From: a virus
Virus record (IMG/VR): IMGVR_UViG_3300009604_000022
Span: 1 to 42,443 of that record
Length of the DNA stretch: 42,443 bases
Strand: one strand, 5' to 3'
Under the pieces are notes generated by a model. The model did no database searches. It was given only the letters and a program-made list of their open reading frames with translations, and was not told where the DNA came from. Made by a program: the position numbers and the translations under genes. Shown here in pieces: positions 1,599 to 23,081 of this stretch; positions within the stretch are counted from its first letter, which is position 1, and each line of letters opens with the position of its first letter.

Positions 1599-4500
1599 CT
1601 ATTTTTGACATCCTTGTCTATACCTTTCAAGTATTCTTTTAAGTCCTGCATCATGGGTTTCAGCCTTAGCAGGAGATTCACCGTAGTTACCAAAGTGTCT
1701 CTTCTGAGAAAAACTATGCATGCCAAAGATCTCTCCCATAGGCACACCGGATCTGGTGTTTTCAGATATAATTTTGCCAAGTTTATGCATATCTTGAGGA
1801 CTAATAAGCTTACCTTGGCCTATAAAATCACTTATAATACCCAATGCTTCAACATGGGCTACAGGATCCTTGCCATTCCCCTTATATATATCTACATTAG
1901 GCTGAACATCTTTCATATTCCTTTGCTTATACCAATCCTGTCCTTGTATCCCTAGATCTAATACAACCTCCATTTCTGGTTTTGATAATGCTAGATGTGA
2001 TAATGCAGTCCTACTGGCTATCTCTTTCATTAACTTTGATGCTTCCTGTGAAGTCATAGTATTCTGTTGTGAGAATTTTTCTCCAGTACCAACACCCATA
2101 AGATAACCTTCTACAACCTTACTTTCAATAGCATTTTCATAATATTTATTGTCATTGATACGTGTACCATCAGGGCTTTTCTGCTGCACTATAACGTCTC
2201 TATTGATAGATGGTGCCAACATTTGCCATATAATTCCCTTTCTCATAAGCTCTGAGTCAACACCGCTCCTATAATGCCCATTTAATATTCTATGGAGCTC
2301 TCCTTGAGCCCTTATTGAGTACTCTCCAGGTGTTATTCTTTTTGCCTTTAAATCATCTTTATGTATTTGAAGTTTTTCCCTAAAGATCTTCATAGCTCCA
2401 GATAGTACCGCTTGTTGTCCACTATCTATTGTAATTCTACCATTTGCTGTGTCTATAAATGGCAGATCATTAAATGCAAGAGATCTAGATTTAAGATAAG
2501 TTTGTTCTTTCACATCAGCAAGCTCAAACCTCTTCCCAGACTGTATCAACATATCTGTCTTATATATATTTTGCTTGTTAGACTGACCTACCCTTATCAC
2601 TTCCTTAATTTTTCCCTCCTTACTCCAGACAACTATAGGAGCAGTCCTTGCAACAAAGGCTTCTTTCTTCACTGTTTCCTTTGGAGACCAAGATGGTTTC
2701 TGATTATCTTTATGGTATTCTGCACCCATTCTTATTTCGGCATCAGCTATTAGTTCTTCATAAAATAGTATCTTCTTCTCAAGGTCCTTAAGCTTTTTAG
2801 CATTTACTTCGCGTGGCTCTGCTGTATAATATTCTTGTGTGTCCTTTAAGTTTGCTAACCTTCTAGTAGCACTCATATACTTTGCATAGTCATGATCCTT
2901 TTGAACATGATTCCATAACCTGTTGCTATGTACGCTAAGTACATCATATGTGTCAGCTTCTACGCCCTTCTCATTAACACTAAGCAACCCCTTCTCTGCC
3001 TTTAATAAAATACTATTAGTAAGGCTGAGTCCATCACTATTACGAGCGCTTTCTGCCTCATTCCTAATTTCAAAGAGTTGTTTCATAGCCCTGTCAAATG
3101 GATTTTGACTAGTCTTTGTAATATATTCCCTAAGAGACTTCATACCTATAGATAAATCAATTGACTCTCGACGGTCTCCGGCTTTGTCCTTTCCAGATAT
3201 CCATAACTCCTGATTCTTGCCATAAGCACCTATTTCAAACATAAAATCCGACCAACCATTGGCTATATCATCTAGCTTAAGTCCTCCCAATGCTTCAGGA
3301 TCAATTGACTCACCCCTATTATGTCTTAGGTATTTTTTAATCGGAGAAAGTATATTATACTTTATTATATCTCTGACTGCAGGATCTTCAAGAACGCCTT
3401 TCGACTCAATGCCATTCTTGTCAATTGTTACTACTTCAAATAGCCCATTAAATCTAAGCATCTGACCAGAGTCATCTATTGGCTTTTTAGAGCCAAGCAT
3501 CAAGTCGTCAATAACCTCTGAAAGGACATCAGTATTCATAGTCTTCTTATAACTATCTATAAATAGCTTAACCCAATGCGTTATCTGGTCAACAGACTTA
3601 TAGTATGCTGAATCTGTTTTTGCCCTTATTTCATATGTTTTATTTCCTACGGTATGTTTAGCAATTGTACCATTGTTAGGAAAGGCATTAAGGATATAGC
3701 TTGCGACATTATGAAGCTTGACAAACTGGCCTCTTGCTAACTCAACATTTTCATGATTTAGTAGCCAAGATCTTAGACTGGCATTGAGATTGTCAGTTTT
3801 ACTCATGTCTACATTAAGCTTAGCAACAATCTCATCAGCCCATGTATATGAATCCATTGATGTTTTTAGACCGCCATTAGCAGCAGCATGTTTGAATACA
3901 TCTTTAGGAGCTGACTGATAAGAACTGGACTTATCAAAATCATGGTCAGCATCTTGTGTCCTTAAAACATCAATAATATTTGCAGCTGATGCATTTCCAT
4001 CCCCACTATCCCTTACATCTTTAACCTTAGTAAGTAAAAAGTCATTCATGCTATTCCTAGGCTGTCTACTTTGTGCGTTAACTATGTCCCATTTTAATTC
4101 ACTTTTAGTGCTGCCCTCTGGGCCTAGCGACTTCAATACATCCCTATAGGTATGTTCTGGACCTATTCCATCCATGATAGTATTATAATCCTTAGCTATG
4201 CCCTCTAAAATACCGACAGCTATCATATCTTTAGTTTTAGCGTTACTGGCTTGAGAATCACCACGACCTCTATATGCTAGGTCTATAGCATTTTCACCAT
4301 CAATAAACCATCCATCTACAATATACTTAAGCTCCTTACCATCTGGAAGTACAACTATGTCAGCCTCCTTTATAGACATGTTACTCTTTGGATCTGCATA
4401 TCTTACACGTGTTGCTAGTGTTGACCCTACATGTTGTAGATGATTATCAGGAGTTGAGACATTAAACTTTTTATATATACTGCTCATGTCAAAATCCGAT

Positions 4501-7500
4501 GCTACATATCCACCTATTATTCTTTGACTACCGCCAGTCCTTACAGGCAAATCCATTTCCCCTATTTTAGTCATAACGTCTGGCATCATAGCATTGTAAG
4601 AGGAGTTTGGAACTGAATTGGTAGCTATTTTACCTCCCTCAAAAAAGAACTTAAACAATCTGTCAAAGGCTACATCCTGCAAGTGTGGCTGTAGAATTAG
4701 GCCACTCTCTTGTAACATAACTTCATATGGTAGTCTATCATATTGCGCATCACCAACATCACGACCCCTCATCAAGAGCTGTTCTAATACATGCGCTGCT
4801 GCATACTCGCTATTCCTTGATGAAATCAACAGATCTTTAAACTGCTGGATACGTTCATGAGAATTCATCCATTCCTCTATGCCTATACTGTGTGGAAAAT
4901 GTACTCCAGTATTTGATCCTACCGTACCTAAATGCTCCCTACTTATATTATTTGTTACATGAGTATCATATGGAAGATCTAAATATGAACCATCTTTATT
5001 ACCTTGAATGATACGTTCTTTAACTATTTCACCTATGCTATTACCTTGATGCATTGATGGCTCAGTCATTCTTGAGATAACTTCTCCGGTCTTATTTTCT
5101 CTATACTTATTAATCTTGTTACCACTTTTAAAGACAACTCCATCCATTCCTTCTGACTCAAGGTACCCAGCTATCTCTTTATCAAAAAACATAGCAGTTT
5201 TATTATAGAATACAACCATTCTACCATTATTATCAACAGATACATGCACTCCCTTAGGCTTTAATGCACCTATTTTAGACATATTAATATTCCCATCTAT
5301 AAACCACTCTGGTCTAGCACCCATTTTTGCAAGCTCAATATTAAATGCTTTCCGAGTTAAGAAGGTTGCTGAATTAACAGATGAGACATCCTTATCAATC
5401 TCTGAAATCATTTCTGCTTTCTCAGCCTCAGTTATAATTCCGTCTTTAACATATCTATCATAGACTCTTTCGGCTATATTCCTTACGGTTAAAGTACCAG
5501 CTTCATCATTTATAGGTATATATCTTTGTCGCTTCGTAGTAATATCACCATCTGGTGCTATAGATTTTAACAGATTGTTCATATCTGCAAATATATTACT
5601 ATGTATAGCCCCTCTTTCATATGAATGTAATAAGAAGTCATAATAGTCTTGAGTTAACATTTTACCCTTATCTAGATGTGTCATCTTACGTCGCTTTATA
5701 GCATCTAACGACTGTGAATAATCCATAGTGGCAGAAGTCTCAAGAACTATGTGTGGCATATTCAAAACTGACCAAGTATAATTTAATGCATCCTTCAACT
5801 GGTCAACTGTCATATCAGATGTGAACTTCTTTGATAACTCTGCAAGTCTAGCATTGCCCTCAGCACTAGTTCCCTCTAGTATTTTAGCAAGCTCCAAATA
5901 CATTGTCCCACCTTCTTTATAGGCATCCTGTATTTTAATCTTAGTTTCGGATATAGGATAAAGAGCACTTACTTCTCCAAATACTACTCTCATAAGCTTT
6001 CTTTTTTGGTGCATCTCTATTTCAACACCTTCAGCCTGTGCCAATACTAAGCTTTCATTCCTAATATTATCTATACCCAATCCACTTTCCATATTAGCAT
6101 CAATAGATGCTTCTTTATCCCTGTTTAAAGGGGCTTTGCGATTGACACCTAGTGCGTCCGTTGTGATAATATCCTTGCCGAACTTGTAATAATCATTATT
6201 CAAGTCCAACTTATTGTTTATGCCATCAAGGCCCAATCTATCACTTGGCATTACAAATGCTTCTCCAAGCTCGCCTAGTTCATTCTTTAACTGAATAGTT
6301 TTAATCTTCTTTCTAAAGACTCTATTGCCTATCATCTGTATAGAATCAGTAATAAGATCGGCTTGATTTACTTTTAAACCTGCTCCAATAGCAGACTGAT
6401 TGGCCAATACTATTAGGTTGTCAAAGGAGTTTATTACTTCAACTACACCACCCCCACCAGGATTATGATATGCTTCATACGCATTGGCCATAACTTTCTC
6501 TATTAAATGTGGATACATAGCGTACTTGGTTTGAAACTTTTGTGGGGAAATATTTATTTCCATAGAATGCTGCTTATCTGGCAGGTTCTTGCTTTCTGAA
6601 TTGATTTCACGCTGGATAATCTCACGCTGGTTTTCTATATTAACTTGACCCGTTTGTATACGAGACATATTTGCCGCTTCCATAGCAAGTTGCGCAACCT
6701 TTTGAGTGTAAGCCGTTGTTATATTCCCCTCAACAGATGCATCTATATTGAGAAACTGTTCAACATTCTTCAACATGTTGGAAAAGTTATTATGCTGCCC
6801 TTCGACTGCAAGCAGCCAAGGCATATTATTTTCAAGTCTAGCAGTATCAAAGCTGTTTTGCAATGAATTAAGAGAGTTAAAAAAGTCTAGAAGTTTTGGC
6901 TTTAACAGATTGATGACGTTTACATCAACAGTTCCTGCGTCAAGATGTGTATTCATTATCTCGTCCAACCTACTTATTCCATCTCTGGCAGATTGCAATT
7001 TCTCAGGCGCATCTAATAAATTCTCAACCTTTCCTAGATCAGAGAAGGTCTTAGCCTTACTAAGGAACTGTATTAAACCATCTACCCCATAAGACTTGAT
7101 AATTTTTTGTGCATTCTCAGCGTTGGCAGAAAACTTAACCATGCCGCCTGTAGCTTTAAGGCTTCCTTGCATACTTTCATACCATTGCATTGCGGGCATG
7201 AGCTCTGCAGCCTGATCGGGAGAAAGGTGTGGTTTTAGAGCTTTAAATAAAGTAATTGACTCTGGTAGTACTACACCCCTTTCAGATGTTCTAGCAAACT
7301 TGCCTCCAGGCTCAATATGCGCAGTACCTTCTGATCCAGATTTTTCTACTATGGAACCATTGATAAGATATGTCATCCCAGCCATAATAGAGGAACTATT
7401 TGTAGCATCTTCTATCTGCATCCTTTTCATAAACTCGCCAGTCATAGAATTAAGGAGCTCACTATAAGATTTGTTATTGGTTAGAATGTCTCCAAAAACA

Positions 7501-10460
7501 CCACCTTCACGATAGGTTTCTACTTCATTTGTATCTTTATTAACTCTTTCTACTGCTGGTCCAAACAAATTGTCAAGCTTTGAGTTAACTTCTGATATGG
7601 TAATAGGTTCAGGTACACCTTCCTGATACTTCCCATTAATCCTGCTATATAATTCTCTTAATTTATTATAAGTAGACACAACATTTTGCTGCGTGTTTGG
7701 GTTTTGACCATCAGTCATAATAAACTTAACTGGCCTGTCTAGCTTTAAAGCTTCTATATTTTTATCAACTTCATTTCTTACTCTTTCAGATAATGTATTA
7801 TAGGTGGAAGACTCTTGTCCAGAGGGAGCTAAGACAGAAAGAAAATTATTCCTTTGTTCCGCATCCTTTATCTGTCTATACATATAACGCATATCTGGAT
7901 TTGTCATAATATCAGGATCAAAACCATATTCCGCACCCCTGCTAACATCGATTCCAGACTGCTCATTAAGGTTTACAACTGCTGCATTTAGGCCCTCCAG
8001 CAATGATTTGTGCTGGCTATTATTTAATAGTGTCACTTCCTTCCTGGTATCTAAAGTAACTAAGCCATCCTTTATACCTTCTTGAACCTGATAGTTAAAT
8101 GCTTCAACTGCTTGCATTAATGCCACTCTTTTTGGGCCTGGTGGCATCTTATGTATAACCTTATCTATGTTAACTGAGGGCATAGTAATCTTATTTGTAT
8201 GCTCATCTATGGTATACTTAAAACCTAAAGTATCCATAGTATTAGCTAGAAACTTAACAATAGGGTCAATATACTTCTGTGCAGCAATACTTAATGTCTT
8301 CCCTTCAACAGTATCAATCCAAGCATCAATATTATTCTTGTGAGAGCCTACATTAGGGGCTTTGCTAATTGACTCTACAATTTCAAACGCCTCTTCTGGT
8401 GTGACATCACGGAATGCTTCATTTTTATGTGGACCAAGATGTTCAAATGCTAGCAATATCTTCAATGCATTCTGCAGCTGCTGTTCTTTATGTGGAGTCA
8501 TCTCTTCTCCCATGCTTTTGATCTTGTCCCTATATGCTGACTCAATATCTTTAGCACCTGGTATGGTTTTTACATCTTCAGTATAATAATCTTTAACTAT
8601 TTCCTTGATATATCTCCATTCTCCAGTTTCTTCCATTGCAGATCTCAATATGGATTGAGGTATACTCTCTCTATTTTGAGGCATATCAACAGGCATACCC
8701 ATATAGGTCATGGCTGCATGCATAGCCTTTGCTCTCTTTGGGGTGGCGCTATATGATTCTGGCTTCTGAGTAGTCTGCCATATATGTTCTCCACCCCAGC
8801 CTAACTTTCGACCCTTTTTAAATATCTGACCTTTCTTTGCAAAGTACATACCTGTCATGACATGTGTTGCAAACTCTTTAGGGTCTCCAATGTCTCCCTT
8901 AGTATGTATTAAATGTGGCAACTGCATTAACATAGATCCTGCTATCATCCTTGGAAGCGAGCCTATAAAATCTTTACCTATTTCACTGCCTATATATGGT
9001 AGCCATTCTTTTGCAAACTGCTTTCGCGTCTGGAATAATATACTCTTGGCCTGATCTCCAGTTAATGTATTTATCCAGGTAGGAGTATTCATAGCTTCAT
9101 GTTTTACAAAGTTCCTAAGGCTAATTCCGCCATGAACCATCGCAGCATCTTCCATCAGTCTTACTCTAGATATTGCCTCACCATCACTTAACTTGCCTAT
9201 CCGCTTTAAAGATCGACCCATATTTTTTAAACCATTCCACAATTCTTTACTGGGGGGAGTCGCTCTACCACCCCTAACAAAATGAGCTGGAGCTATCGCT
9301 GCAAATCCTAACCCAGCATTCCTAGCATCCCTTAAGAACCCTGCTATACCTTCTTTATTCTTCCATAGCCCTGGATGCATCTTGGATTCTTTATCATCTA
9401 TTTCTAACCCTAAAGCATTGGCAGTTGCGAATGTTAGATTGCCCATAGCTTCATTACCAGTGTGGTATATCAAGCCAGTAGTAAAATTGCTAGCTGCTGC
9501 AACTGCTAACTGCCTTTTACGTGGGCCCAATTTATTTATAAGTGGCATGTTAGAAAGTATCCTATGGATATCACCTGGGTCATGTTTGATCATTATTTCC
9601 AACATTTCACTAGCAAGCTCATTTCTTTCAAGTTCACTTAACTCAGGGGCAAACTTCTTAATACTATCTCGCATACCTGCTGTGGCATCGTCTAATGCCT
9701 TAACATTGTTACCTATAATTTGCTTAAATCTCTTTCTAAATAGGGGATTCTTACTGCTAAAGCCAAGCAATTCATCAGATTCCCTAACTATACCATGGAA
9801 GGCATCATCACCCAGGTTGGCTACAGTCTGCTGCATTTGTGCAGCTCCCTTTTTGGTGGCATATTTTGCTGCAAGCTTCTCACTAATAGAAGCTGTTCTT
9901 CTAGCTTTACCTGTAGCAGTAAGTCCTCTGCTTGCCCTAGTTAGAAATGAAAGTCCTTTCATCCATCCAGTAATTGGGACCATCATACCAAGACCGGAGC
10001 CTACAATATATCCAGCATTTCCAGCAAATGTATCTTCTTCCCAAGGCCTATATCTTCCTGACTCATCTGTCCCAAAAATAAAAGGCTGAGAACCTCCAAC
10101 ACGAAAGCCTCCACCTGGGGTTAATGGAATACCACTTTTCCTTAGTGCCTTCCCAGGCTCGGTAAGAGTGGCGACATCTAAAACTCCAAATGATGCTGAT
10201 TCTTGAAACCCCCAAGCAGCTTCACCCATAAAATCTAATAGTTGGTCTACTGCACCGGCAGTATCTTTATACCTTGTAACTCCACTACCAAGCTCCTCTA
10301 AACGTCTTAGTCTATTTGCTATAGAATTTTCACCCTCCATTGAGGGATCATCACTGGAAGTTGTAGCATTAGTCTCTGTATTGACAGGAGTTAATAATCC
10401 ATCCTCTTCTTGTAATAGCTTTTCTAAATCCATTAAGCTAAGACTTTTAGCGTCAGCCAT
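1599..10460 (-). CDS. Giant internal virion protein, possible two-barrel virion RNA polymerase
   Basis: A 2953-aa protein with a strong ribosome binding site (GAGGAGGGG) and uninterrupted frame. The N-terminus (residues 1-60) is disordered and acidic; residues about 80-190 contain Gly-rich hydrophobic stretches (GNAGYIVGSGLGMMVPITG). Two features recall two-barrel RNA polymerases (QDE-1/YonO/crAss virion polymerase type). One is GMDGVVFKSGNKINK with Lys1778, Lys1782 and Lys1785, like the lysine barrel. The other is SRQPRNSMNDFLLTKV (about 2129-2144) leading to LRTQDADHDFDKSSSY, with a D-x-D-x-D-K at 2172-2177 like the metal-binding DFDGD/DFDxDK loop. Position and size fit a protein injected with the DNA to transcribe early genes. 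Much of the protein has no assignable domain; it could be another giant polyvalent protein. Confidence 0.7.
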   Translation of the reverse strand: MADAKSLSLMDLEKLLQEEDGLLTPVNTETNATTSSDDPSMEGENSIANRLRRLEELGSGVTRYKDTAGAVDQLLDFMGEAAWGFQESASFGVLDVATLTEPGKALRKSGIPLTPGGGFRVGGSQPFIFGTDESGRYRPWEEDTFAGNAGYIVGSGLGMMVPITGWMKGLSFLTRASRGLTATGKARRTASISEKLAAKYATKKGAAQMQQTVANLGDDAFHGIVRESDELLGFSSKNPLFRKRFKQIIGNNVKALDDATAGMRDSIKKFAPELSELERNELASEMLEIMIKHDPGDIHRILSNMPLINKLGPRKRQLAVAAASNFTTGLIYHTGNEAMGNLTFATANALGLEIDDKESKMHPGLWKNKEGIAGFLRDARNAGLGFAAIAPAHFVRGGRATPPSKELWNGLKNMGRSLKRIGKLSDGEAISRVRLMEDAAMVHGGISLRNFVKHEAMNTPTWINTLTGDQAKSILFQTRKQFAKEWLPYIGSEIGKDFIGSLPRMIAGSMLMQLPHLIHTKGDIGDPKEFATHVMTGMYFAKKGQIFKKGRKLGWGGEHIWQTTQKPESYSATPKRAKAMHAAMTYMGMPVDMPQNRESIPQSILRSAMEETGEWRYIKEIVKDYYTEDVKTIPGAKDIESAYRDKIKSMGEEMTPHKEQQLQNALKILLAFEHLGPHKNEAFRDVTPEEAFEIVESISKAPNVGSHKNNIDAWIDTVEGKTLSIAAQKYIDPIVKFLANTMDTLGFKYTIDEHTNKITMPSVNIDKVIHKMPPGPKRVALMQAVEAFNYQVQEGIKDGLVTLDTRKEVTLLNNSQHKSLLEGLNAAVVNLNEQSGIDVSRGAEYGFDPDIMTNPDMRYMYRQIKDAEQRNNFLSVLAPSGQESSTYNTLSERVRNEVDKNIEALKLDRPVKFIMTDGQNPNTQQNVVSTYNKLRELYSRINGKYQEGVPEPITISEVNSKLDNLFGPAVERVNKDTNEVETYREGGVFGDILTNNKSYSELLNSMTGEFMKRMQIEDATNSSSIMAGMTYLINGSIVEKSGSEGTAHIEPGGKFARTSERGVVLPESITLFKALKPHLSPDQAAELMPAMQWYESMQGSLKATGGMVKFSANAENAQKIIKSYGVDGLIQFLSKAKTFSDLGKVENLLDAPEKLQSARDGISRLDEIMNTHLDAGTVDVNVINLLKPKLLDFFNSLNSLQNSFDTARLENNMPWLLAVEGQHNNFSNMLKNVEQFLNIDASVEGNITTAYTQKVAQLAMEAANMSRIQTGQVNIENQREIIQREINSESKNLPDKQHSMEINISPQKFQTKYAMYPHLIEKVMANAYEAYHNPGGGGVVEVINSFDNLIVLANQSAIGAGLKVNQADLITDSIQMIGNRVFRKKIKTIQLKNELGELGEAFVMPSDRLGLDGINNKLDLNNDYYKFGKDIITTDALGVNRKAPLNRDKEASIDANMESGLGIDNIRNESLVLAQAEGVEIEMHQKRKLMRVVFGEVSALYPISETKIKIQDAYKEGGTMYLELAKILEGTSAEGNARLAELSKKFTSDMTVDQLKDALNYTWSVLNMPHIVLETSATMDYSQSLDAIKRRKMTHLDKGKMLTQDYYDFLLHSYERGAIHSNIFADMNNLLKSIAPDGDITTKRQRYIPINDEAGTLTVRNIAERVYDRYVKDGIITEAEKAEMISEIDKDVSSVNSATFLTRKAFNIELAKMGARPEWFIDGNINMSKIGALKPKGVHVSVDNNGRMVVFYNKTAMFFDKEIAGYLESEGMDGVVFKSGNKINKYRENKTGEVISRMTEPSMHQGNSIGEIVKERIIQGNKDGSYLDLPYDTHVTNNISREHLGTVGSNTGVHFPHSIGIEEWMNSHERIQQFKDLLISSRNSEYAAAHVLEQLLMRGRDVGDAQYDRLPYEVMLQESGLILQPHLQDVAFDRLFKFFFEGGKIATNSVPNSSYNAMMPDVMTKIGEMDLPVRTGGSQRIIGGYVASDFDMSSIYKKFNVSTPDNHLQHVGSTLATRVRYADPKSNMSIKEADIVVLPDGKELKYIVDGWFIDGENAIDLAYRGRGDSQASNAKTKDMIAVGILEGIAKDYNTIMDGIGPEHTYRDVLKSLGPEGSTKSELKWDIVNAQSRQPRNSMNDFLLTKVKDVRDSGDGNASAANIIDVLRTQDADHDFDKSSSYQSAPKDVFKHAAANGGLKTSMDSYTWADEIVAKLNVDMSKTDNLNASLRSWLLNHENVELARGQFVKLHNVASYILNAFPNNGTIAKHTVGNKTYEIRAKTDSAYYKSVDQITHWVKLFIDSYKKTMNTDVLSEVIDDLMLGSKKPIDDSGQMLRFNGLFEVVTIDKNGIESKGVLEDPAVRDIIKYNILSPIKKYLRHNRGESIDPEALGGLKLDDIANGWSDFMFEIGAYGKNQELWISGKDKAGDRRESIDLSIGMKSLREYITKTSQNPFDRAMKQLFEIRNEAESARNSDGLSLTNSILLKAEKGLLSVNEKGVEADTYDVLSVHSNRLWNHVQKDHDYAKYMSATRRLANLKDTQEYYTAEPREVNAKKLKDLEKKILFYEELIADAEIRMGAEYHKDNQKPSWSPKETVKKEAFVARTAPIVVWSKEGKIKEVIRVGQSNKQNIYKTDMLIQSGKRFELADVKEQTYLKSRSLAFNDLPFIDTANGRITIDSGQQAVLSGAMKIFREKLQIHKDDLKAKRITPGEYSIRAQGELHRILNGHYRSGVDSELMRKGIIWQMLAPSINRDVIVQQKSPDGTRINDNKYYENAIESKVVEGYLMGVGTGEKFSQQNTMTSQEASKLMKEIASRTALSHLALSKPEMEVVLDLGIQGQDWYKQRNMKDVQPNVDIYKGNGKDPVAHVEALGIISDFIGQGKLISPQDMHKLGKIISENTRSGVPMGEIFGMHSFSQKRHFGNYGESPAKAETHDAGLKRILERYRQGCQK

Positions 10461-12002
10461 TTAAAAACCCCTCCTCATTTGTACTGCATTAAAGAGTGCA
10501 GCAGTTCTTATTTTATCATCTTCGTCTTCCATTTCCTCAACAGATGCTATATTTTCATTGAATACATCCAACACAGAAGACTCATCCTTCTTTGACCCAT
10601 TGTATGATCCGCTATTTATCGTTTTAATAAGTTCTAACATGTCCTGTGTAGTAGGGTCTAATAGTATTTGAAGGTCTTCTCCCGCTAATCCTAGGTCCTG
10701 TGCTTTGCCAACATTCTCTTCTATGAGCTTTGCATACTTAATTACTCTAACATCACTATAAGCCTGTTCTCCCAATAGGTTTTTCAACTTCTTGGCAGCT
10801 GCTTGTATCTTTTCCTTAGTGACGATATTATCTCTAATAATCTTACCATCTGCATCTCTAGTTTCTATACCTAAATTTTTAGACAGCTGAATAAAGAATC
10901 CATCCATTCTAACCTGCCTATCTTTTGTATACTTCTCTTTAGCCTCATCTGAGGAAAAGGTTTTCTTAGAGGCTGGGGGATAGGATACTAAAAACTGTGT
11001 AAATGCTTGGACTACCTCAACGGTAGGAGCTATAACTCTATTAATAAAATACTCTGGTGCAGGATTGGATCCAGTAGCAGCCCCATACGCCTCAAGGTAT
11101 ACCTCAGGTCCAACCAGGTCAAATAGAGGATTAGTAAGGCCGATAGCATCATATCCATCTGCCATCATCTGTACTGAATCATTTACAAAGTCATCATTTG
11201 ACATTACACTAGATATATAATCATTAGCAGTTTTAGCATCCTCAGTTAGGGCAGCTACCTCTGGGAATAGAGTTAATGTTTCCCTATCTGTTTGTATATC
11301 CATTAAGATTTTGGTTTGGTCTAGGTTATGTTCTTCGTGACCTAGTCTAGCCGCATCAAGTTTCTGCTGTGTTTGCTTAGCATTCTTTTCAGCTAAAGCT
11401 AGGTTTAAGTCCTGTAGTTCTTTCGGTCCTGGTAGGCTCTTGTCTAATGCGAGTTGCTGATTAGAGCTAAGGTCATTAACATTAGCCTTAACTTTATATT
11501 CAGCAATAGCATCTTGATAGTCACCTAGATCCCATTGCTCTGGATCATCACCACCTTCCCATTTCACATGCTTATCTATAAATTGTAGTGCATTATTTAT
11601 GTCGAGTAGCTCTTGTTTCCCTTTTCGTATATTACTATATAGAGATGTTTGCTGCTTGGCCTGTGAGCTAATAACATCACCCAGTTCTTTATTTTTCTTT
11701 CCACTTTTCTGATGAAAATCAGTAAATCCTGAAGTAGGATTATCAGGTATAACTCCGGTTCTTTCTGTGATAGCAGCATTCACTGTTTCTAGTTCTTTCT
11801 CCATAATCTTGATATCGTTCATCTGTATCTGAAAGACGCTTTTATCGTACTCAAGTTTTCTTTCCTTGTCAAGCTGGGCTCTCTTAAAATCCATAGCATC
11901 ACGCTCAAGCAATGCAGTTGTTTTTATATTTTGTACACTAGCTTTATGTTCTAGCAATTGTCCAGACAAGGTTAATAAAGCCGCTATTCCTTCTTCTTCC
12001 AT
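10461..12002 (-). CDS. Coiled-coil internal virion protein candidate
   Basis: A 513-aa protein, mostly helical. Residues 1-240 are coiled-coil rich (TTALLERDAMDFKRAQLDKE, KIMEKELETVNAAITE, LALAEKNAKQTQQKLDAARL); the middle (about 260-350) holds a more folded stretch (DGYDAIGLTNPLFDLVGPEV); the C-terminus is acidic (VEEMEDEDDKIR). The start lies in the TAATG overlap with the Hint-flanked gene, using a GAGG site within that gene's last codons, so production of the two proteins is coupled. It precedes the giant gene with no spacer. Such coiled-coil proteins between tail and giant internal proteins are often ejected with DNA. No enzymatic motif seen. Confidence 0.6.
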   Translation of the reverse strand: MEEEGIAALLTLSGQLLEHKASVQNIKTTALLERDAMDFKRAQLDKERKLEYDKSVFQIQMNDIKIMEKELETVNAAITERTGVIPDNPTSGFTDFHQKSGKKNKELGDVISSQAKQQTSLYSNIRKGKQELLDINNALQFIDKHVKWEGGDDPEQWDLGDYQDAIAEYKVKANVNDLSSNQQLALDKSLPGPKELQDLNLALAEKNAKQTQQKLDAARLGHEEHNLDQTKILMDIQTDRETLTLFPEVAALTEDAKTANDYISSVMSNDDFVNDSVQMMADGYDAIGLTNPLFDLVGPEVYLEAYGAATGSNPAPEYFINRVIAPTVEVVQAFTQFLVSYPPASKKTFSSDEAKEKYTKDRQVRMDGFFIQLSKNLGIETRDADGKIIRDNIVTKEKIQAAAKKLKNLLGEQAYSDVRVIKYAKLIEENVGKAQDLGLAGEDLQILLDPTTQDMLELIKTINSGSYNGSKKDESSVLDVFNENIASVEEMEDEDDKIRTAALFNAVQMRRGF

Positions 12003-13492
12003 TATATATCCTCTGTTAAAATAATTGTATCACCTGAAAAGCATCTCGGAACTATATATTGATTCTCTCCTGACGCATTATCCATATTCCCAGGCCCCAT
12101 TACTTGCTGCAACTTAGCATCCCCAGATGCTCCAGACCATACTTTTTGAATACTTGCCATAGGATCTATTGTTACAGTATTATCCGCATTGGAACCTGGA
12201 TTGGAGAATGTATCAGTTGTCGTAGTCTCCCCAGTGTCATTCTTAACAGTGCCAGCAAAATTACCCATAGCATACTTTTTGCTCAACATGTCAGTAGCAG
12301 TTTGCACTCCATTTGCAGACTTTAGGTCGTAAGAAGACGTTACAGCAACTGTACCTGCACCAGAAGACAACATGCTATCTACGTTACCAGTATATTTACT
12401 CTGAGAAATAGCAGGAGTATATGCTGTAGCTTCATCTTGAGCACTGCCATCTTTAACTCTTGAAGCAGAATTCTTTCTCTGTTTGCCTTTTAAAAAGCCT
12501 ACAGTACCTTTATAGGTATCATTCATAGATAGGGTTTGTTTATTTAGGGCACTGACTACACTATTTGTCTGGTCACTCATAGCGCTTTCCATATCTAGCG
12601 CAGCTTGTTTAACTGCATCTCTAAAATCTGATTGAGCCTTGTCATCTTCAAAAGTTCTAGCCTCCAATGCTTTTTCTGCTGAGTCTTGTGCTTCCTGTTG
12701 GGCCTCTGCCGTAGCCCCACCAAGATTCACATCCATATCCATTTGCAATCTTTCATTTCCACTAACCATACCACTAGCTTCTTTAGCTTGATTTACAGAT
12801 CTTTGAGCTTCTCTAAATGTTTCTCCAGCACTTTTAAGGTTTACTGTCTTGGCAGTCCTTATATCATCCTGTGTTGTAAGCAGGGTCTGGGCATTAGCTG
12901 CTAATGAATCTGCTAAATCTTTTTGAAAGCCAGTATTTCCTTCTGAAGAACCATCAAGGCTTGGTGATGTTAAGCCAACGGAGTCCTTAAATGCACGCGC
13001 TGCTTCAAATTGACTCCCTAGTGCAGTGCCTACACTATCTGGAACTGTTGCATTAAAGGTGTCTGCTGCATTGTTAATCTCTGTTCTAGACGCTCCAACA
13101 TCACTACCAGCATACTTATCTCTGCCTATATAGCTCCCACTTTTACCATTGTGGACAAGTATACCATTAGCAAAGTAATTATGCTGTCCTTCAACCTCCA
13201 TATTGTATACTGTTATCGATTCTTCAATGCGCTTTAAACTTTTAACTGGGACAGTATGTCCAGACTGATTGAGAAGCTTATCACCCTTTTTTAAGTCCCT
13301 AACTCTTATCCATTCCCCCTCAACATAATAGGGATGCATTTCGGTAACCTTAGTTTTACCATTAAGTATATAATAATGATCACTAATATGCTCCCATATT
13401 TCTGATACATTGGAAAATGAAAAAACTTTATCTTCAGTATTGTAAACCTTGACTCTATCCCCTACAACTATATCCTTTATCTGTTTAGACAT
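12002..13492 (-). CDS. Virion protein flanked by permuted halves of a Hint/intein domain
   Basis: A 496-aa protein (start at ATG 13490-13492, where GGAG precedes it by 6 bases; the ATG at 13507 has no such site). Residues 2-115 are most of an intein-like Hint fold: KQIKDIVVGDRVKVYN at the start, the block B motif T50-x-x-H53 in VTEMHPYY, and a block F ending in NYFANGILVHN with penultimate His114 and Asn115. Residues 484-496 (CFSGDTIILTEDI, then stop) are the missing first segment with candidate catalytic Cys484. Joined, these give a normal 128-aa mini-intein, but in permuted order, with a 368-residue body (116-483) between. The residue after Asn115 is Gly, unlike canonical inteins. The body is Ala/Ser/Asp-rich with helices and resembles an internal virion protein. 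Confidence 0.8.
   Translation of the reverse strand: MSKQIKDIVVGDRVKVYNTEDKVFSFSNVSEIWEHISDHYYILNGKTKVTEMHPYYVEGEWIRVRDLKKGDKLLNQSGHTVPVKSLKRIEESITVYNMEVEGQHNYFANGILVHNGKSGSYIGRDKYAGSDVGASRTEINNAADTFNATVPDSVGTALGSQFEAARAFKDSVGLTSPSLDGSSEGNTGFQKDLADSLAANAQTLLTTQDDIRTAKTVNLKSAGETFREAQRSVNQAKEASGMVSGNERLQMDMDVNLGGATAEAQQEAQDSAEKALEARTFEDDKAQSDFRDAVKQAALDMESAMSDQTNSVVSALNKQTLSMNDTYKGTVGFLKGKQRKNSASRVKDGSAQDEATAYTPAISQSKYTGNVDSMLSSGAGTVAVTSSYDLKSANGVQTATDMLSKKYAMGNFAGTVKNDTGETTTTDTFSNPGSNADNTVTIDPMASIQKVWSGASGDAKLQQVMGPGNMDNASGENQYIVPRCFSGDTIILTEDI
12005..12043 (-). other. N-terminal Hint fragment (IntN-like) at the end of the 496-aa protein
   Basis: Residues 484-496, CFSGDTIILTEDI, a textbook intein N-terminal block A (Cys, then GDT and hydrophobic strand) directly before the stop codon TAA at 12002-12004. 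Its last codons (GAG GAT ATA TAA TG) also provide the ribosome binding site and start of the next gene, so sequence here is under double use. The preceding residues are ENQYIVPR. Confidence 0.8.
13094..13147 (-). repeat. Direct repeat copy B, body start after the Hint junction
   Basis: Encodes GKSGSYIGRDKYAGSDVG, residues 116-133 of the 496-aa protein, immediately following His-Asn. Matches copy A (13500-13556) at GK-x-GS-x-IGRD and, after a variable stretch with one residue gap, DVG. Confidence 0.6.
13148..13492 (-). other. C-terminal Hint half (IntC-like) at the start of the 496-aa protein
   Basis: Residues 1-115 of the 496-aa protein. Contains the strand KQIKDIVVGDRV that usually follows the first 12-15 residues of inteins, T50-x-x-H53, His104, and the terminal His114-Asn115. 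It lacks the N-terminal Cys segment, which is instead at the other end of the same protein. The following residue is Gly116. The half is flanked at the DNA level by diverged direct repeats (13500-13556 and 13094-13147). Confidence 0.8.
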
Positions 13493-16025
13493 ATCTATCT
13501 CCAACATCTTTAAATTTCTTTTTATAATCCCTGCCTATAGTACTACCTCTCTTACCCTCTGCAATCATACTTCCCACCTGTCCTCCGGCAGAGGCTATAC
13601 TTCCCACGGAGCCAGCTTTGAGCATACTAAGTCCAATAGGAGTTATGTATGCACTGGCAGCCTGCCCAACGCCTGGGACAAGGTTTGCCAATAACCCAAC
13701 TGCAGTTACAACTCCACCTACTATAGAAACACCGCCAGAAACTTGCTTCGCCTTACCAAAGGCTTCACCCATTTCATTGCCTGCGCTACCTGCTGCACCT
13801 GCTTCCTCTCCTCCAGATGCAATATCTAATCCACCAGTTACAACACTTGCTGGTATTGATAAGGCTGCCTTTGCAACCTCCTTAGCGGCCTGTTTAGAGG
13901 CCTGTTTTGCAACTACATTAGTTATATCATCTGCACCTTTTTTTGCTAATATATCTCCTATCATTTCACCTGTTTTTTCGGTAGCCTTTTTTTCTATTCT
14001 CTTAGTGGCTACTTTACTTCCTGTATCCTTGAGAATATTAGCACTAGACTCTATTTTTTCTTCTTTAGTCTTTTCTTCATTGACAACATCAGATACTCCA
14101 GATATTAGCTCTTTACTATTTTTAACTCCACTTATAATTTGTGAAGCCTTAGTATTTTGAGTGATCTTATCTGTAATATCTTTCATACTTTTCTTATTAG
14201 TTTTTTCCTCTGGATTATATATAGCACCAACTTCTTCATTGATGCTTTCCTCGGTTGATTTCAAGGTGGCATCTTCTGGGACAACACCTAGTTCAGCTAG
14301 ATCGTCACGACTTTCTACATCTTCAGCTCCTATCTCATTACCTCTGAACTGATCTGACTCTACAGGTACATTAGGGTCAGAATATTTACCAGTCCCTTCC
14401 TTCCTATCAATCTTCTCCATCCTATCCCTATACTGTTGAGCTGGATTATCTCTGTAGGTTTCAGCACCCTTTTCCATATCCTCTATGATGGATTTCATAT
14501 TAGCATCATGTTCCATTGTCTTGTTTAACGCTTCCACTTCTTCACCAGCAGCAATTGATTCACGAGTAAGTTCATGAGGTAGTTTATATGACTCATCTAA
14601 TGCTTCTATTGGAGATGAGCCTGTCTTTCCACCTGGGATCAGCCTTTGTAGCTTAGCTTGAAATCCTGGAAGATTATACTTTGGATCCTTGCCAACACTA
14701 ATATCTTCATCAAAGAATTCATCCTCCGATTCTACTGGAACAATAGGAGCTTTAGGTACTGGACCTCTACCAGGTATAAACTCTACATCATCTCCAAACT
14801 TTTCATAGAATTCATCACCCTTTTTCTTTGCTGTGAGCGCTTTATTTCTGCTATAATTAGGGTAGTCACCAGAACCATCTATGCTGGTATTCATAGGATC
14901 AACAGATTGCACTTCTTCATCACCAAATTCAAAGTTCTTAAGGCTAGCCGCTACCTCGTCAGAAGCTGCAGCACGATCCCCACCATAAGCTTCATCAGCA
15001 AGTTGGATCTTTTGTTCGTGTTGAATGTTAATTGTCTCTTCATCATCAGGATCATAAGTAGAAGTAGCAAGATCAGCCTTTCTTACAGGAGCACTAGTTT
15101 CAAAAGCATTCTTTCCTTGACCAAAGTTAGCCCCAACTCCAATGTCTCCATCACCTGCACCATCTACTAGATTGGTTTTAGGACTAAATGTATTAACTCC
15201 TCCCTGACTTTCTGTATACATAATGTTCTCATATTTTTCCCCAGACAAAGGATTAGTTGGATCCAGGCCCTTACTTGTTAGTAGAGCTTCTTGATCAGTC
15301 CTCATCCTGTTCAGCATAGCATAAGAAGGTTGATAGCCAGAGGTGGCAAGGTTAGGGTCCCTAACTGGAGTACTAGTCTGAAATGCATTACCTGCTGTCT
15401 GCCCAAAGTTAGATTTAACTCCTACACCTCCATACTGTCTATGTTGAACTAAATCATCATACATCCCTGGAGTAAGGCCCGAACCTTCCAAGGAACTATA
15501 ATCCATTGTAGGATCAGAACCACCTATTGAAGGCATCTGATCAATTTTAGATATTCTAGAGCGCTCTCCTTGAAACTTATCCATGTACTCCTTAGCAGCA
15601 GTAGAGCCATAGAGTGTTGCCATCTGATCTTCTTGAGTAAGATCCATTGTAGCTTGGCCTTTTACTTGCTTTATAACTTCTGGATTTTGCTCTACATAAT
15701 CCCCTGTTACATTTTTATATAAGTTTCCAACTCCCTGGTTAAACTTTTCCTTTAAAGTATTTGCACCTGTAGATCTTGTATCTGAATATAGGTTAGTACC
15801 TTCCTTAATGTTCCCTACATCATTTTTTGCCTGAATGCCCAATAAAGCTTCAGACTCAAGGACATTTGCCTCACGCTTTTTTACTAATGATTTTCCAACA
15901 ATAGCAGCAGCTTGCAGCGCATTTGAGTCCTGTTGTGTTTGATATGCCTCTGCACCTCTATCTCTACGCTCTCTAAATCGCCTACTGTCAGAGAGTCTTT
16001 GTTTTGTTCCTGAGTATCTACTCAT
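13485..16025 (-). CDS. Probable internal/ejection protein with duplicated segment and hydrophobic end
   Basis: An 846-aa protein with AAGGAG before ATG. Residues 200-233 and 296-326 are a clear internal duplication (NFGQTAGNAFQTSTPVRD and NFGQGKNAFETSAPVRK, each ending LATS-x-Y). The middle (residues about 330-680) is acidic, charged and probably disordered. A Lys/Ala-rich helix (about 640-700) leads to a glycine/alanine-rich hydrophobic region (about 705-824; VSIVGGVVTAVGLLANLVPG, ASAYITPIGLSMLKAGSVG) that could insert in the cell membrane during DNA ejection. The C-terminus GKRGSTIGRDYKKKFKDVG is closely similar to the start of the body of the next protein. No enzyme motif seen. Its stop overlaps the next gene by 8 bases. 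Confidence 0.6.
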   Translation of the reverse strand: MSRYSGTKQRLSDSRRFRERRDRGAEAYQTQQDSNALQAAAIVGKSLVKKREANVLESEALLGIQAKNDVGNIKEGTNLYSDTRSTGANTLKEKFNQGVGNLYKNVTGDYVEQNPEVIKQVKGQATMDLTQEDQMATLYGSTAAKEYMDKFQGERSRISKIDQMPSIGGSDPTMDYSSLEGSGLTPGMYDDLVQHRQYGGVGVKSNFGQTAGNAFQTSTPVRDPNLATSGYQPSYAMLNRMRTDQEALLTSKGLDPTNPLSGEKYENIMYTESQGGVNTFSPKTNLVDGAGDGDIGVGANFGQGKNAFETSAPVRKADLATSTYDPDDEETINIQHEQKIQLADEAYGGDRAAASDEVAASLKNFEFGDEEVQSVDPMNTSIDGSGDYPNYSRNKALTAKKKGDEFYEKFGDDVEFIPGRGPVPKAPIVPVESEDEFFDEDISVGKDPKYNLPGFQAKLQRLIPGGKTGSSPIEALDESYKLPHELTRESIAAGEEVEALNKTMEHDANMKSIIEDMEKGAETYRDNPAQQYRDRMEKIDRKEGTGKYSDPNVPVESDQFRGNEIGAEDVESRDDLAELGVVPEDATLKSTEESINEEVGAIYNPEEKTNKKSMKDITDKITQNTKASQIISGVKNSKELISGVSDVVNEEKTKEEKIESSANILKDTGSKVATKRIEKKATEKTGEMIGDILAKKGADDITNVVAKQASKQAAKEVAKAALSIPASVVTGGLDIASGGEEAGAAGSAGNEMGEAFGKAKQVSGGVSIVGGVVTAVGLLANLVPGVGQAASAYITPIGLSMLKAGSVGSIASAGGQVGSMIAEGKRGSTIGRDYKKKFKDVGDRYV
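13500..13556 (-). repeat. Direct repeat copy A, end of 846-aa gene
   Basis: Encodes GKRGSTIGRDYKKKFKDVG at the end of the 846-aa protein. Its partner copy B (13094-13147) encodes GKSGSYIGRDKYAGSDVG right after the Hint Asn115. About three-quarters of bases match in the first 33 positions. The Hint C-terminal half lies exactly between the copies. Confidence 0.6.
15048..15140 (-). repeat. Internal duplication unit 2 in the 846-aa gene
   Basis: Encodes residues 296-326 (GVGANFGQGKNAFETS, then APVRKADLATSTYDP), the second copy of the unit at 15327-15428. The copies are about 95 residues apart. Confidence 0.65.
15327..15428 (-). repeat. Internal duplication unit 1 in the 846-aa gene
   Basis: Encodes residues 200-233 of the 846-aa protein (GVGVKSNFGQTAGNAFQTS, then PVRDPNLATSGYQP). 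It pairs with unit 2 at 15048-15140. Protein similarity extends over about 31 residues, with DNA similarity clear in ACTAGTxCTCC and CTAACTTTGG. Confidence 0.65.
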
Positions 16026-19100: not shown

Positions 19101-20067
19101 GATCAATATATCCTACCCTATCTACATATAGTGAGGTATTTACTGTGATACCCTGATTAAAATGCCAAGTATCATCATCATTGTCCCATAGAATAGTCTT
19201 ATTAGCAGTTCCAAGAAGTATGATTCCACCACCATCAGCAGTTAGGTCTGTAGGGGTTCCAACATTGCCTAAGTTTATATTTGTATCAGTTACAGTTAGG
19301 TCGGAGCTATTAATAGTAGTTGTTCCACCATCAACAGTAAAAGTCCCATTGATCGTTGTATTGCCAGTAACGTCTAGGGTTCCTAGGATAGATGTATTTT
19401 GTTGCCCATCAAAGCTGATGGCAGCACTCCCACCACTATCATTAATATCATTTCCCTCAACTTTCAGGTCGCCACTAATTTCTAGACCAGCATCAATATC
19501 TACTGTACCAGTTGAAGGGTTTGATATAATATTACTATTCCCAAGCGTTAGACTACCTTTTATAGTTATACTATCTGGAAGTCCTATTGTAAACTTTTGC
19601 CATCCAGCCTGTGTTTCTGTTAAATCAACGGTTGTTTCATTGGCAACACCAACAAGTTGAAGTAAACCTCCACCTTGTTTTAAATAGACATCCTTAGTAT
19701 CAGTATCTGAATCTCTAACCTGAAATCTTTGGGCACCTTGCTTAAGGTAGGTATAATCAATACTTTCAGCAGGCATAACTAGGTCATCAGCATCTCCAGC
19801 AAAGGTAAATTCACTATTTACAGTTAATGTTTTTGCGATAAGTTGGGAATATTCTTGAACACCCATACTCCTAACCTCTACTACTTGCTGATCCCCAGCA
19901 GATAGCGCAGTTTCAATAGCCCTAATTGCGTACCACTTAGTACCGTATTTAATGTATAAAAATATACCCACTCCAGGTATATTTCTTACACTCAAATCAC
20001 CAGGGCTACCCTCTGAACTAGCAGGTGCTCCATCTTTTGGGGTTGGCATTCCTATGGGATTGGACAT
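16111..20067 (-). CDS. Large tail fibre with gp53-like C-terminal receptor-binding domain
   Basis: A 1318-aa fibre. Residues about 1-110 are an attachment region (DLSVRNIPGVGIFLYIKYGT). Residues about 220-270 carry the fibre shaft pattern LDVTGNTTINGTF...LTVTDTNINLG. A module ending in Y-(L/I)-(K/Q)-W-x-S-x-T-L recurs three times (about 766, 863 and 1093: YLKWVSNTLTVSG, YLKWNGSTLDIKG, YIQWDSNTLSVAG). Residues about 1137-1190 are YadA-like head repeats (NIAIGGFNSGG, NVQIGVGAG, NTIIIGHSG, RILIGTSA). The last 85 residues (YTKIGKFIFQFGWFSS ... DIGMIDFPNQCFGVQCSYA ... VINVWAIGY) match the gp53-like C-terminal receptor-binding domain. It starts with a TAATG overlap from the nozzle gene. Confidence 0.85.
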   Translation of the reverse strand: MSNPIGMPTPKDGAPASSEGSPGDLSVRNIPGVGIFLYIKYGTKWYAIRAIETALSAGDQQVVEVRSMGVQEYSQLIAKTLTVNSEFTFAGDADDLVMPAESIDYTYLKQGAQRFQVRDSDTDTKDVYLKQGGGLLQLVGVANETTVDLTETQAGWQKFTIGLPDSITIKGSLTLGNSNIISNPSTGTVDIDAGLEISGDLKVEGNDINDSGGSAAISFDGQQNTSILGTLDVTGNTTINGTFTVDGGTTTINSSDLTVTDTNINLGNVGTPTDLTADGGGIILLGTANKTILWDNDDDTWHFNQGITVNTSLYVDRVGYIDRVGINTATPDRALDVAGNANEGGIRYVGAAGANSILEAGNSGLGGIDFKTVDSTSQPYNHFLFNDGYVGIGTSGPDRKLDVSDAANPQLRLTRTDGSVFVDFEAGSNTSGDLYINPDHETAHAIILNVDNNVDPGYGTTIKTDGAQSQVKGWQIDYLGGADFRYLYTDELHAKAFIADLEQALAGGQIISKSVAILAVDFTAPDNDGTADLIVEDLPSAENMAVFEANDHVRLRTFDRSGGELTIYDCWGVVTGYTDGDGTTYEDKTQKWTFTRASSGNGGAISQNTVIKAGSLILDYGTDGNGYYEVNAIDGENAANSPYAQIVTWTDGATGTGPGTPNAFTVNARLGNLKGVHPSGSTEYGLFAGDGSATTDSYLLLSESSAELHNLPLRLFKDSSETIKLEPGLSAEQPYIAVGTSLIDGTWGSSDKGFLVKGSATDGAELYIGSYDGNYLKWVSNTLTVSGVIHVASGGSYSGDSIPESYTDADATDYTTNNTESNLESGTTITSGGIQLSTGGSIRTTGIDYDGTGIFFGYHGSDYKLSLKGATQYLKWNGSTLDIKGNITMDGGSISWNNVTTSGTVPYDTAGSASDVQTNLNTLDTTVTTQGTYIDGSGIYTGTLTASQINGLSLNIGGTDANSWHVDTNGNMWWGSGGSYSNATIKISSAGSVDFTTGTFSGDVSIGGTTLNTTNTLNTNTNWSDVSGTANAPANNADVTNYNTNNTQNNISSSLLTISGGGLNLTNSAAKIYSGSKSSYNSSNQGFFLGGDGTLGVGNATSYIQWDSNTLSVAGEIKMSKASFSAGNISIGLSGSWGDSFSGTDNIAIGGFNSGGSGTGNVQIGVGAGRFFTNPSNTIIIGHSGNELSGSNRILIGTSAHTDAWIGGSTFPTHLHTTIADDCDFESKDWASSGQTAGQGGYTKIGKFIFQFGWFSSTSDQSQSIDFTDIGMIDFPNQCFGVQCSYAGKVSGLTKTGFSFDRLNEMGNSVINVWAIGY

Positions 20068-23000: not shown

Positions 23001-23081
23001 ATCATCTGCAAGCGCCCTATTAGAGTCTACAGTATTTATTCCTCCGCTAAACTTATTTAGTTGTAAGTTTTGCTTTGCCAC
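20067..23081 (-). CDS. Tail nozzle/hub-like protein
   Basis: A 1004-aa protein whose N-terminus LNKFSGGINTVDSNRALAD (residues 8-26) followed by FAKNCDVSKEGRIGVL matches the start pattern of large tail hub or stabilisation proteins of short-tailed phages, in which an SGGIN-type motif precedes a beta-propeller-like body. The middle (about residues 390-510) has repeating blade-like strands: VALIDVGNQLLQFKRTSLYV, VLDITETG, GVMWINETGLHLYGG. Comparable proteins (P22 gp10 type, T7 gp12 type) form the ring or nozzle below the portal. The start is GTG with no ribosome binding site; an in-frame TAA directly precedes it, so no longer start is possible. Confidence 0.5.
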   Translation of the reverse strand: MAKQNLQLNKFSGGINTVDSNRALADDQTPFAKNCDVSKEGRIGVLGNALTSYGNVNDSTAVGDPGYGLFVFSHDYDMLENGDSNSGALKTPANVSTTYICKATSTGISVYDKVNGFWYNDLITFDDTANANDPLPIFYMADGALRVCDANSPDDAVKWLGHIKRSLFETGLQYNGWFTQDAQLNSDTIANTNSVGDGFPLHVTIRHSATDNTFTSGDSANVNVFTTWVEDTSTTPIATWSAGGDYQLWASGLYDTSRQEGPLVDIGSMGTPPGSSGASSLKLGIDIDITATPSDVLNPRMIGLRIYYSNNRDAVETAYQLVEVDFVKGVKKTGGTGYTAFGATGDVYSVPSTMTATASNVIEFIDPPFAATYDAKNGHYSSEETKIAFKTAVVIGRRCYAGNIAFQKETTGNNFKSDQMVKSAFNQFDKFPEFNSSTTAVNDGDDIVALIDVGNQLLQFKRTSLYVLDITETGESVSAKHDFRGISRPCHVTKTPMGVMWINETGLHLYGGKGDIQNLIKGKISTEVWNFSDNMSLGYNDEFAKIIVAKDVNIYDADSNPDAGDALVFDLKSMSWMEGGKILSDIGNKTNFQTTPEGDIIYAVDGTKTGYIHTTNDVTFKFFGKLKKYSTAFSAQAWEQSQYPWKLLPNDDSYTDGNRDVAPFQGVERTIIDWQNDKHFITASSWTGGDAQYSTGTPQFSDYNRFTIAYSGASTPANDVDGNTMFDGEAFYCIPIDTNGNIGTDITNLSISPAGKTSLGTTLNRLRDIVGDVLDNNSLESPNNGVKTFDDMIAATTSNATFAEYAVGGGAVWSINLTTPGNTDVDSVEFTLSVTVNPSTAFTVTGASILKWSDQPVNSENFRYYTRDIDFGSSSSGKRISTTYITYRSVSARDALDDIPIPTNSNVHPMLHLTTDSGLYTVLPDTDNSTNYSATLGLLGDTNDWMQSEIKWNNLDVNNKSVPSVIQSAQLVLYRDPTLNSAALVTGGFEISDISFSFRAKAIK

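What the first reader, a model, noticed from the sequence alone, without database searches (positions are those of the whole stretch)
12002..13492. Naturally permuted Hint/intein halves flank a phage virion protein (IntC-body-IntN)
Seen: the protein starts with residues matching positions about 14-128 of an intein-like Hint domain (KQIKDIVVGDRV, T-x-x-H, terminal His-Asn), and ends with the exact missing first 13 residues (CFSGDTIILTEDI), followed by the stop. No other gene in the window has a partner half, so both halves are on one chain. Known: this order is the one engineered to make backbone-cyclic proteins with split inteins, and very short N-terminal fragments occur in atypically split inteins. 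Inference: the 368-residue body may be cyclised, or neighbouring subunits may be joined head-to-tail, or the termini may be trimmed at maturation. Gly after Asn115 argues against classic transesterification and fits BIL-type Hint chemistry (Asn cleavage exposing a free amine, thioester at Arg483). I am not aware of a described natural example in this order.
Basis: partly seen in the sequence, partly recalled or inferred. Interest (0 to 1): 0.95.

Follow-up and report, generated by a model that had tools for sequence, protein, structure and literature searches.

The report
Naturally inside-out intein on phage protein
A marine phage protein carries the two parts of a self-cutting intein-like domain swapped to its opposite ends, the order engineers use to make circular proteins; a distant relative has the same order in the same gene position, so it looks like a real, conserved natural system rather than an accident.

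Summary
The gene is on the minus strand (13492..12002, 496 aa). Residues 1-115 are a Hint domain lacking its first block, and the last 13 residues (CFSGDTIILTEDI) are that block. The tail scores 19.4 bits on a first-block profile; the best of 535,853 13-mers in Hint-free relatives scores 12.2. All catalytic residues are present. AlphaFold2 folds the tail at pLDDT 93 with a matching strand at the N-terminus once first-block relatives are supplied; without them the tail is unresolved.

Going further, I found a second gene with the same inverted order (L445:8556-10163) in a distant relative phage, in the same slot between a Gly-zipper gene and gene C. Its Hint is 39% identical, while the protein it encloses is not alignable. 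A third phage (L339) carries a canonical C-terminal Hint (38-44% identical) in that slot; eight further relatives have no Hint there. The inversion is therefore real, probably kept by selection, and best explained as circular permutation of a body-Hint protein.

Most likely it excises both Hint parts by BIL-type chemistry (+1 residue is Gly or Lys) and joins the body ends, within one chain or between subunits. Ligation versus mere trimming is not shown. I found no published natural example.

The parts
12002..13492 (-). Permuted-Hint gene: IntC (1-115) - body (116-483) - IntN (484-496), stop TAA at 12004-12002
   Evidence: the alternative upstream ATG at 13507 has no clear ribosome site
13148..13492 (-). 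IntC: Hint domain from the second hairpin strand to His-Asn (residues 1-115), with TEMH, HNYF and terminal HN
   Evidence: Pfam PT-HINT E=3e-15; AlphaFold2 pLDDT >90; Foldseek best matches are BIL domains 6y75/6tmm/2lwy
12044..13147 (-). Body, 368 aa, helical, starting GKSGSYIGRD and ending NQYIVPR; presumed virion protein by position
   Evidence: no family match outside the Hint; helices 139-350 in P0001 numbering; same slot as Hint-less genes of relatives
12005..12043 (-). IntN: first Hint block CFSGDTIILTEDI at the extreme C-terminus; Cys484 codon 12043-12041
   Evidence: 19.4-bit score versus 12.2 for the best of 535,853 13-mers; pLDDT about 93 when first-block relatives are supplied
13499..13502 (-). 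Ribosome-binding site GGAG, 6 nt before the ATG at 13492, inside the end of gene A
   Evidence: read directly
12010..12013 (-). GAGG within the IntN codons, 7 nt before the ATG (12002) of gene C: IntN codons double as the likely ribosome site of the next gene
   Evidence: read directly; similar layout in L445
13485..16025 (-). Gene A (846 aa), Gly-zipper at its C-terminus; its stop overlaps the Hint gene start (ATGTCTAA)
10461..12002 (-). Gene C (513 aa), follows with TAATG overlap; then the 2953-aa gene (1599-10460)
   Evidence: same gene order in relatives
13527..13556 (-). Imperfect repeat copy 1 (gene A end, GKRGSTIGRD); copy 2 at 13118-13147 is the first 30 nt after Asn115 (GKSGSYIGRD)
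   Evidence: 77% identity; 26/5000 protein and 8/2000 DNA shuffles reach it; suggestive only, other chance repeats of this size occur nearby; no such repeat in L445

Best explanation
A naturally circularly permuted, BIL-type self-processing Hint. The first block (IntN, 13 aa) sits at the C-terminus of a fast-evolving phage protein and the rest of the Hint (IntC, 115 aa) at its N-terminus. Shown by sequence and prediction: the pieces are complementary at the S1 split loop, all catalytic residues are kept, and the order recurs in a second phage in the same gene slot. Inferred: the two ends meet in one chain or between neighbouring subunits, Cys484 turns the Arg483 junction into a thioester, Asn115 cyclises and frees the Gly116 amine, and that amine attacks the thioester. 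The Hint parts leave and the 368-residue body becomes backbone-cyclic or joined head-to-tail to its neighbour, possibly timed by assembly. The gene arose by permutation of a body-Hint protein with a canonical C-terminal Hint, as still seen in L339.
For: Profile and chance tests. Cys1, TxxH, F-block His, penultimate His and Asn all present. Boundary at the S1 split site: engineered S1 inteins have a 10-12 aa IntN, split between strands beta2 and beta3 (PMC3620165); the shortest natural IntN characterised by 2023 was 15 aa (PMC10189870). AlphaFold2 with first-block rows: tail pLDDT about 93, strands 495-498 and 6-9 appear together. Second permuted gene L445: IntC-body-IntN, tail CLEGNVKIAMGDKDGE at 18.4 bits; of 331 Hint hits in 445 loci only these two have a C-terminal first block, next best 7.4; Hint parts 39% identical, E=1e-23, bodies not alignable, so selection acts on the Hint. 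Same slot and gene order. Canonical counterpart in the same slot, L339, 38.5% and 44% identical. Closest folds are BIL domains. Type A BILs are proposed to ligate by free-amine attack without a +1 nucleophile (PMC4031507).
Against: No biochemical evidence. BIL ligation is usually minor beside cleavage (PMC4031507), and two engineered S1 inteins only cleaved. In L339 the Hint ends HN-Lys-stop, so there the shared function could be release or transfer of the body C-terminus rather than ligation of two ends. The docked structure needed added first-block rows; without them the tail was undocked at pLDDT about 30. Body homology between window and L445 was not detected, and the common ancestry of the two permuted Hints is neither shown nor rejected (p-AU 0.365).
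Confidence: 0.5

Rival explanations
1. Cleavage only: the reassembled Hint trims both ends of the body during maturation (Asn115 cleavage removes the N-terminal 115 aa, thioester hydrolysis removes the C-terminal 13 aa) and no ligation follows.
For: BILs cleave more than they ligate (PMC4031507); [quoted passage not shown] +1 is not Cys/Ser/Thr here or in L445; the canonical counterpart L339 has only Lys after Asn, so nothing of size to ligate.
Against: Trimming alone does not need the two halves on opposite ends of one chain; a canonical C-terminal Hint plus a normal start would do.
Confidence: 0.27
2. Covalent attachment to another protein: the thioester at Arg483 is taken by a lysine or N-terminus of a different virion protein, as in the isopeptide-forming BIL2 of Tetrahymena.
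For: Closest solved structures are T. thermophila BIL2, which forms isopeptide bonds (PMC8616854); would also suit L339, whose Hint ends HN-Lys.
Against: BIL2 is only about 30% identical; no acceptor is known; conservation of His-Asn next to the body in the permuted form is better explained if the body N-terminus is freed.
Confidence: 0.1
3. Inactive structural Hint: the split domain only pins the two ends together, or is a decaying relic.
For: Some phage Hints have lost Cys1 (N-terminal Hints on collagen-like proteins); the body varies freely.
Against: All catalytic residues kept in both permuted genes although their bodies cannot be aligned.
Confidence: 0.1
4. Assembly or chimera artefact of one metagenomic contig.
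For: Only one contig covers the window gene; the 99.9% identical contig G001 ends before it.
Against: Both junctions are tight, coupled phage gene junctions; the same order occurs in a different contig in the same slot.
Confidence: 0.02

Closest known systems
Bacterial intein-like (BIL) domains, type A (e.g. Clostridium thermocellum BIL, 2lwy; Tetrahymena BIL2, 6y75)
   Same: Hint fold, Cys1, TxxH, terminal His-Asn, no Cys/Ser/Thr at +1; best sequence and fold matches
   Different: Known BILs are continuous and lie between or after their flanks; here the domain is cut at the S1 loop and its parts are exchanged to opposite ends of the flank
Engineered inverted split inteins (SICLOPPS-type IntC-target-IntN cyclisation)
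   Same: Same order IntC-target-IntN on one chain (PMC7765530)
   Different: Engineered, usually DnaE halves with a +1 nucleophile; this one is natural, cut near the N-terminus (13 aa), with Gly at +1
Naturally atypically split inteins (short IntN, e.g. PolB16 OarG, IntN 15 aa)
   Same: Cut in the same region near the first block, very short IntN (PMC10189870)
   Different: Those are two separate pieces in the order extein-IntN / IntC-extein; here one gene, reverse order
Phage structural proteins with C-terminal Hint (L339 slot gene; Alexandra-like gp114; L153/L198)
   Same: Hint fused to a phage module protein; L339 occupies the same slot with a 38.5%-identical Hint
   Different: Canonical, continuous Hint at or near the C-terminus

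Membership tests
Hint superfamily | Hint fold with first-block Cys, TxxH and terminal His-Asn | tested here: met
   PT-HINT and Intein_splicing above cut-off; residues conserved in the alignments; fold match
Hint superfamily | Blocks in the order first block to His-Asn along one stretch of chain | tested here: not met
   first block at residues 484-496, remainder at 1-115
BIL type A | Terminal His-Asn and no nucleophile at +1 | tested here: met
   HN followed by Gly (window) and Lys (L445)
BIL type A | Asn-dependent cleavage and thioester formation | not testable with these tools
   needs expression and mutants
Canonical (class 1) intein | Cys/Ser/Thr at +1 and insertion within a conserved host protein | tested here: not met
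   +1 Gly; the flanked body is fast-evolving and unmatched
Split intein | IntN and IntC on two genes that trans-splice two host halves | tested here: not met
   both on one gene in reverse order; no other Hint in the window, though the genome is incomplete
SICLOPPS-like cyclisation (works like) | IntC-target-IntN on one chain | tested here: met
   repeated in L445
SICLOPPS-like cyclisation (works like) | Cyclic product | not testable with these tools
   needs mass spectrometry

The most novel reading that the evidence does not exclude
The first natural inverted split Hint: a phage that makes a backbone-cyclic or head-to-tail covalently joined virion protein by BIL-type aminolysis, with catalysis depending on the two ends (possibly of neighbouring subunits) meeting during assembly.
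Probability: 0.45. Interest if true: 0.95.

Novelty: new variant of a known kind. Interest (0 to 1): 0.88.

Why it matters
Cyclising or polymerising a protein with an inverted split intein is so far known as an engineering trick; nature using the same order, in at least two phages, would be a new route to circular or chain-linked virion proteins and a source of ready-made cyclising tools with a 13-16-aa IntN and no +1 nucleophile. Finding no Hint, a canonical C-terminal Hint and a permuted Hint in one gene slot also lets the origin of a circular permutation be traced in real genomes.

Tried and rejected
Single-protein scans of viral contigs with the full protein, and with the 2953-aa gene, found no relatives. 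The first Hint profile had no stretch conserved enough to scan. A fixed-gap pattern with three codons after ATG gave no permuted Hint; four codons gave L445. The pattern for CFxGDT first blocks gave only continuous domains, L339 among them. The gene-end first-block regex flagged only the window gene in the loci held at that time. Body homology with slot proteins of relatives was not significant for the window or L445. A Gly-zipper-plus-body fusion ancestor, suggested by the repeat and by G003, is not established. Aligning bare 13-mers misplaced the Hint rows, so the alignment with short flanks was folded. The bacterial genome scan with the terminal-block pattern gave only continuous or cut-off Hints. 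Search of 49 further terminase-relative contigs with both permuted proteins found no third case, with L445 as positive control, but most are short fragments. Paper searches found no natural inverted intein; the library lacks most subscription journals.

Full report
What is there. The window is a 42,443-base virus record of a tailed phage, a relative of contigs of about 55 kb (terminase relatives). On the minus strand, between gene A (13485-16025) and gene C (10461-12002), lies a 496-aa gene (13492..12002). Its start overlaps the stop of gene A (ATGTCTAA) behind a GGAG ribosome site, and its stop overlaps the start of gene C (TAATG). Residues 1-115 match Pfam PT-HINT from profile position 9 on (E=3e-15); the first block is missing there. 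The last 13 residues, CFSGDTIILTEDI, are that block. Putting it back in front raises the Hint and intein profile scores and gives a clean alignment with continuous phage Hints, with Cys1, TxxH, the F-block His and the terminal His-Asn all present.

Chance. On a matrix from 30 other Hint first blocks the tail scores 19.4 bits; the best of 535,853 13-mers in Hint-free relatives scores 12.2 and the best of 3,819 ORF ends 3.3.

Structure. AlphaFold2 with relatives for the N-terminal part only gives a confident Hint and an unresolved tail. With first-block relatives aligned to the tail, in separate rows, the tail reaches pLDDT about 93 and a strand at 495-498 appears together with one at 6-9. I read this as the first hairpin of the Hint closing across the two termini; it comes from the secondary-structure listing, not from measured contacts. 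The cut lies at the S1 split site of engineered inteins (PMC3620165); the shortest natural IntN characterised by 2023 had 15 aa (PMC10189870).

A second case. A pattern scan for ORFs that begin a few codons before the IxDIxxGDxV block, screened with a Hint profile and the first-block matrix, gave one more permuted gene: L445:8556-10163 (minus), MKFKSIKDIKIGDYV...MLNHN-KCGKYEG...FGTGK-CLEGNVKIAMGDKDGE. Of 331 Hint domain hits in 445 loci, only these two have a first block at the C-terminus (18.4 and 19.2 bits; next 7.4). Search of L445's contig with the window protein gives E=3.6e-20; the Hint parts are 39% identical, E=1e-23. The bodies are not alignable above chance (445 of 1000 shuffles). 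L445 belongs to a distant relative phage: its tail gene is 26% identical to window gene 20067-23081 (E=4e-35) and its large gene matches those of window relatives. The slot is the same: Gly-zipper gene, then (after a GNAT acetyltransferase) the permuted gene, then gene C, a short gene and the large gene. Gene C of L445 and of the window resemble each other weakly (7 of 500 shuffles). In L445 too the IntN codons overlap the ribosome site and start of gene C.

The canonical counterpart. L339 has the same order (tail gene 26-27% identical to window and L445, small fibre-like gene, Gly-zipper gene, slot gene, gene-C-like gene), and its slot gene ends in a continuous Hint, CFTGDT...YLVHNK-stop, 38.5% identical to the window's and 44% to L445's. 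Its gene A and gene C are assigned by position and character; they gave no BLAST match. In eight relatives with a readable slot (G002, G003, G012, G013, G019, G021, G023, G026) no Hint is present; the window protein does detect L445 at 39% identity, so the empty results mean something. So one slot shows no Hint, a canonical C-terminal Hint, and a permuted Hint. A tree places window, L445, L177 and L339 together (81/86); it neither shows nor rejects a single origin of the permutation (p-AU 0.365).

How it most likely works. Both permuted Hints keep every catalytic residue while the protein between them has changed beyond recognition, so the chemistry is what appears to be selected. The +1 residue is Gly or Lys, so the branched-ester route is closed; type A BILs are instead proposed to ligate by attack of the freed amine on the thioester (PMC4031507). 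In this order that attack joins the two ends of the body, in one chain or between neighbours. Cleavage without ligation and isopeptide transfer to another protein (as in Tetrahymena BIL2, PMC8616854) remain open. The wide separation of the two parts would let assembly of the virion control the reaction; that is inference.

Origin. Permutation by duplication of a body-Hint gene followed by loss of the outer parts is the simplest route. An imperfect repeat between the end of gene A and the first residues after Asn115 might be its trace, but it is weak and absent from L445.

Limits. No reaction was tested. One contig covers each permuted gene. Pattern scans see only part of the collection, so two cases is a lower bound. 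That the body is a virion protein rests on its place among structural genes. The paper library lacks most subscription journals, so 'not described' is limited to what could be searched.

Noticed in passing
L204, L210, L272, L258, L163, L266: Collagen-like (TGPTGP) phage proteins begin with an N-terminal Hint that ends HN-TGPTGP but seems to have lost Cys1 (e.g. MSLIHALHEDTLLEVNG): possibly an N-terminal domain that only does Asn cleavage.
   Followed up: no
L445:10163-10615: A GNAT acetyltransferase gene sits directly before the second permuted-Hint gene, between it and the Gly-zipper gene; absent in the window.
   Followed up: no
L147, L148, L152: Alexandra-like jumbo phages carry a collagen-like virion protein with a C-terminal Hint ending a few residues after HN.
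   Followed up: no
L144 (Ruminococcus phage NatCom_3870): At least two Hint proteins in one phage, with small C-terminal flanks that resemble polymorphic-toxin layouts.
   Followed up: no
L158, L167, L169, L170 and similar: Phage ORFs with several Hint-like domains in tandem (one HN followed at once by another first block and a further Hint end near the C-terminus).
   Followed up: no
L122 end / L086 start (contig G003): The contig ends overlap by 170 bases with one mismatch, so this relative appears complete; its slot gene has a Gly-zipper and a helical part in one ORF, without Hint.
   Followed up: partly
window 1599-10460: 2953-aa gene without a known family, matched at about 20-25% identity in several relatives, directly after gene C.
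   Followed up: no
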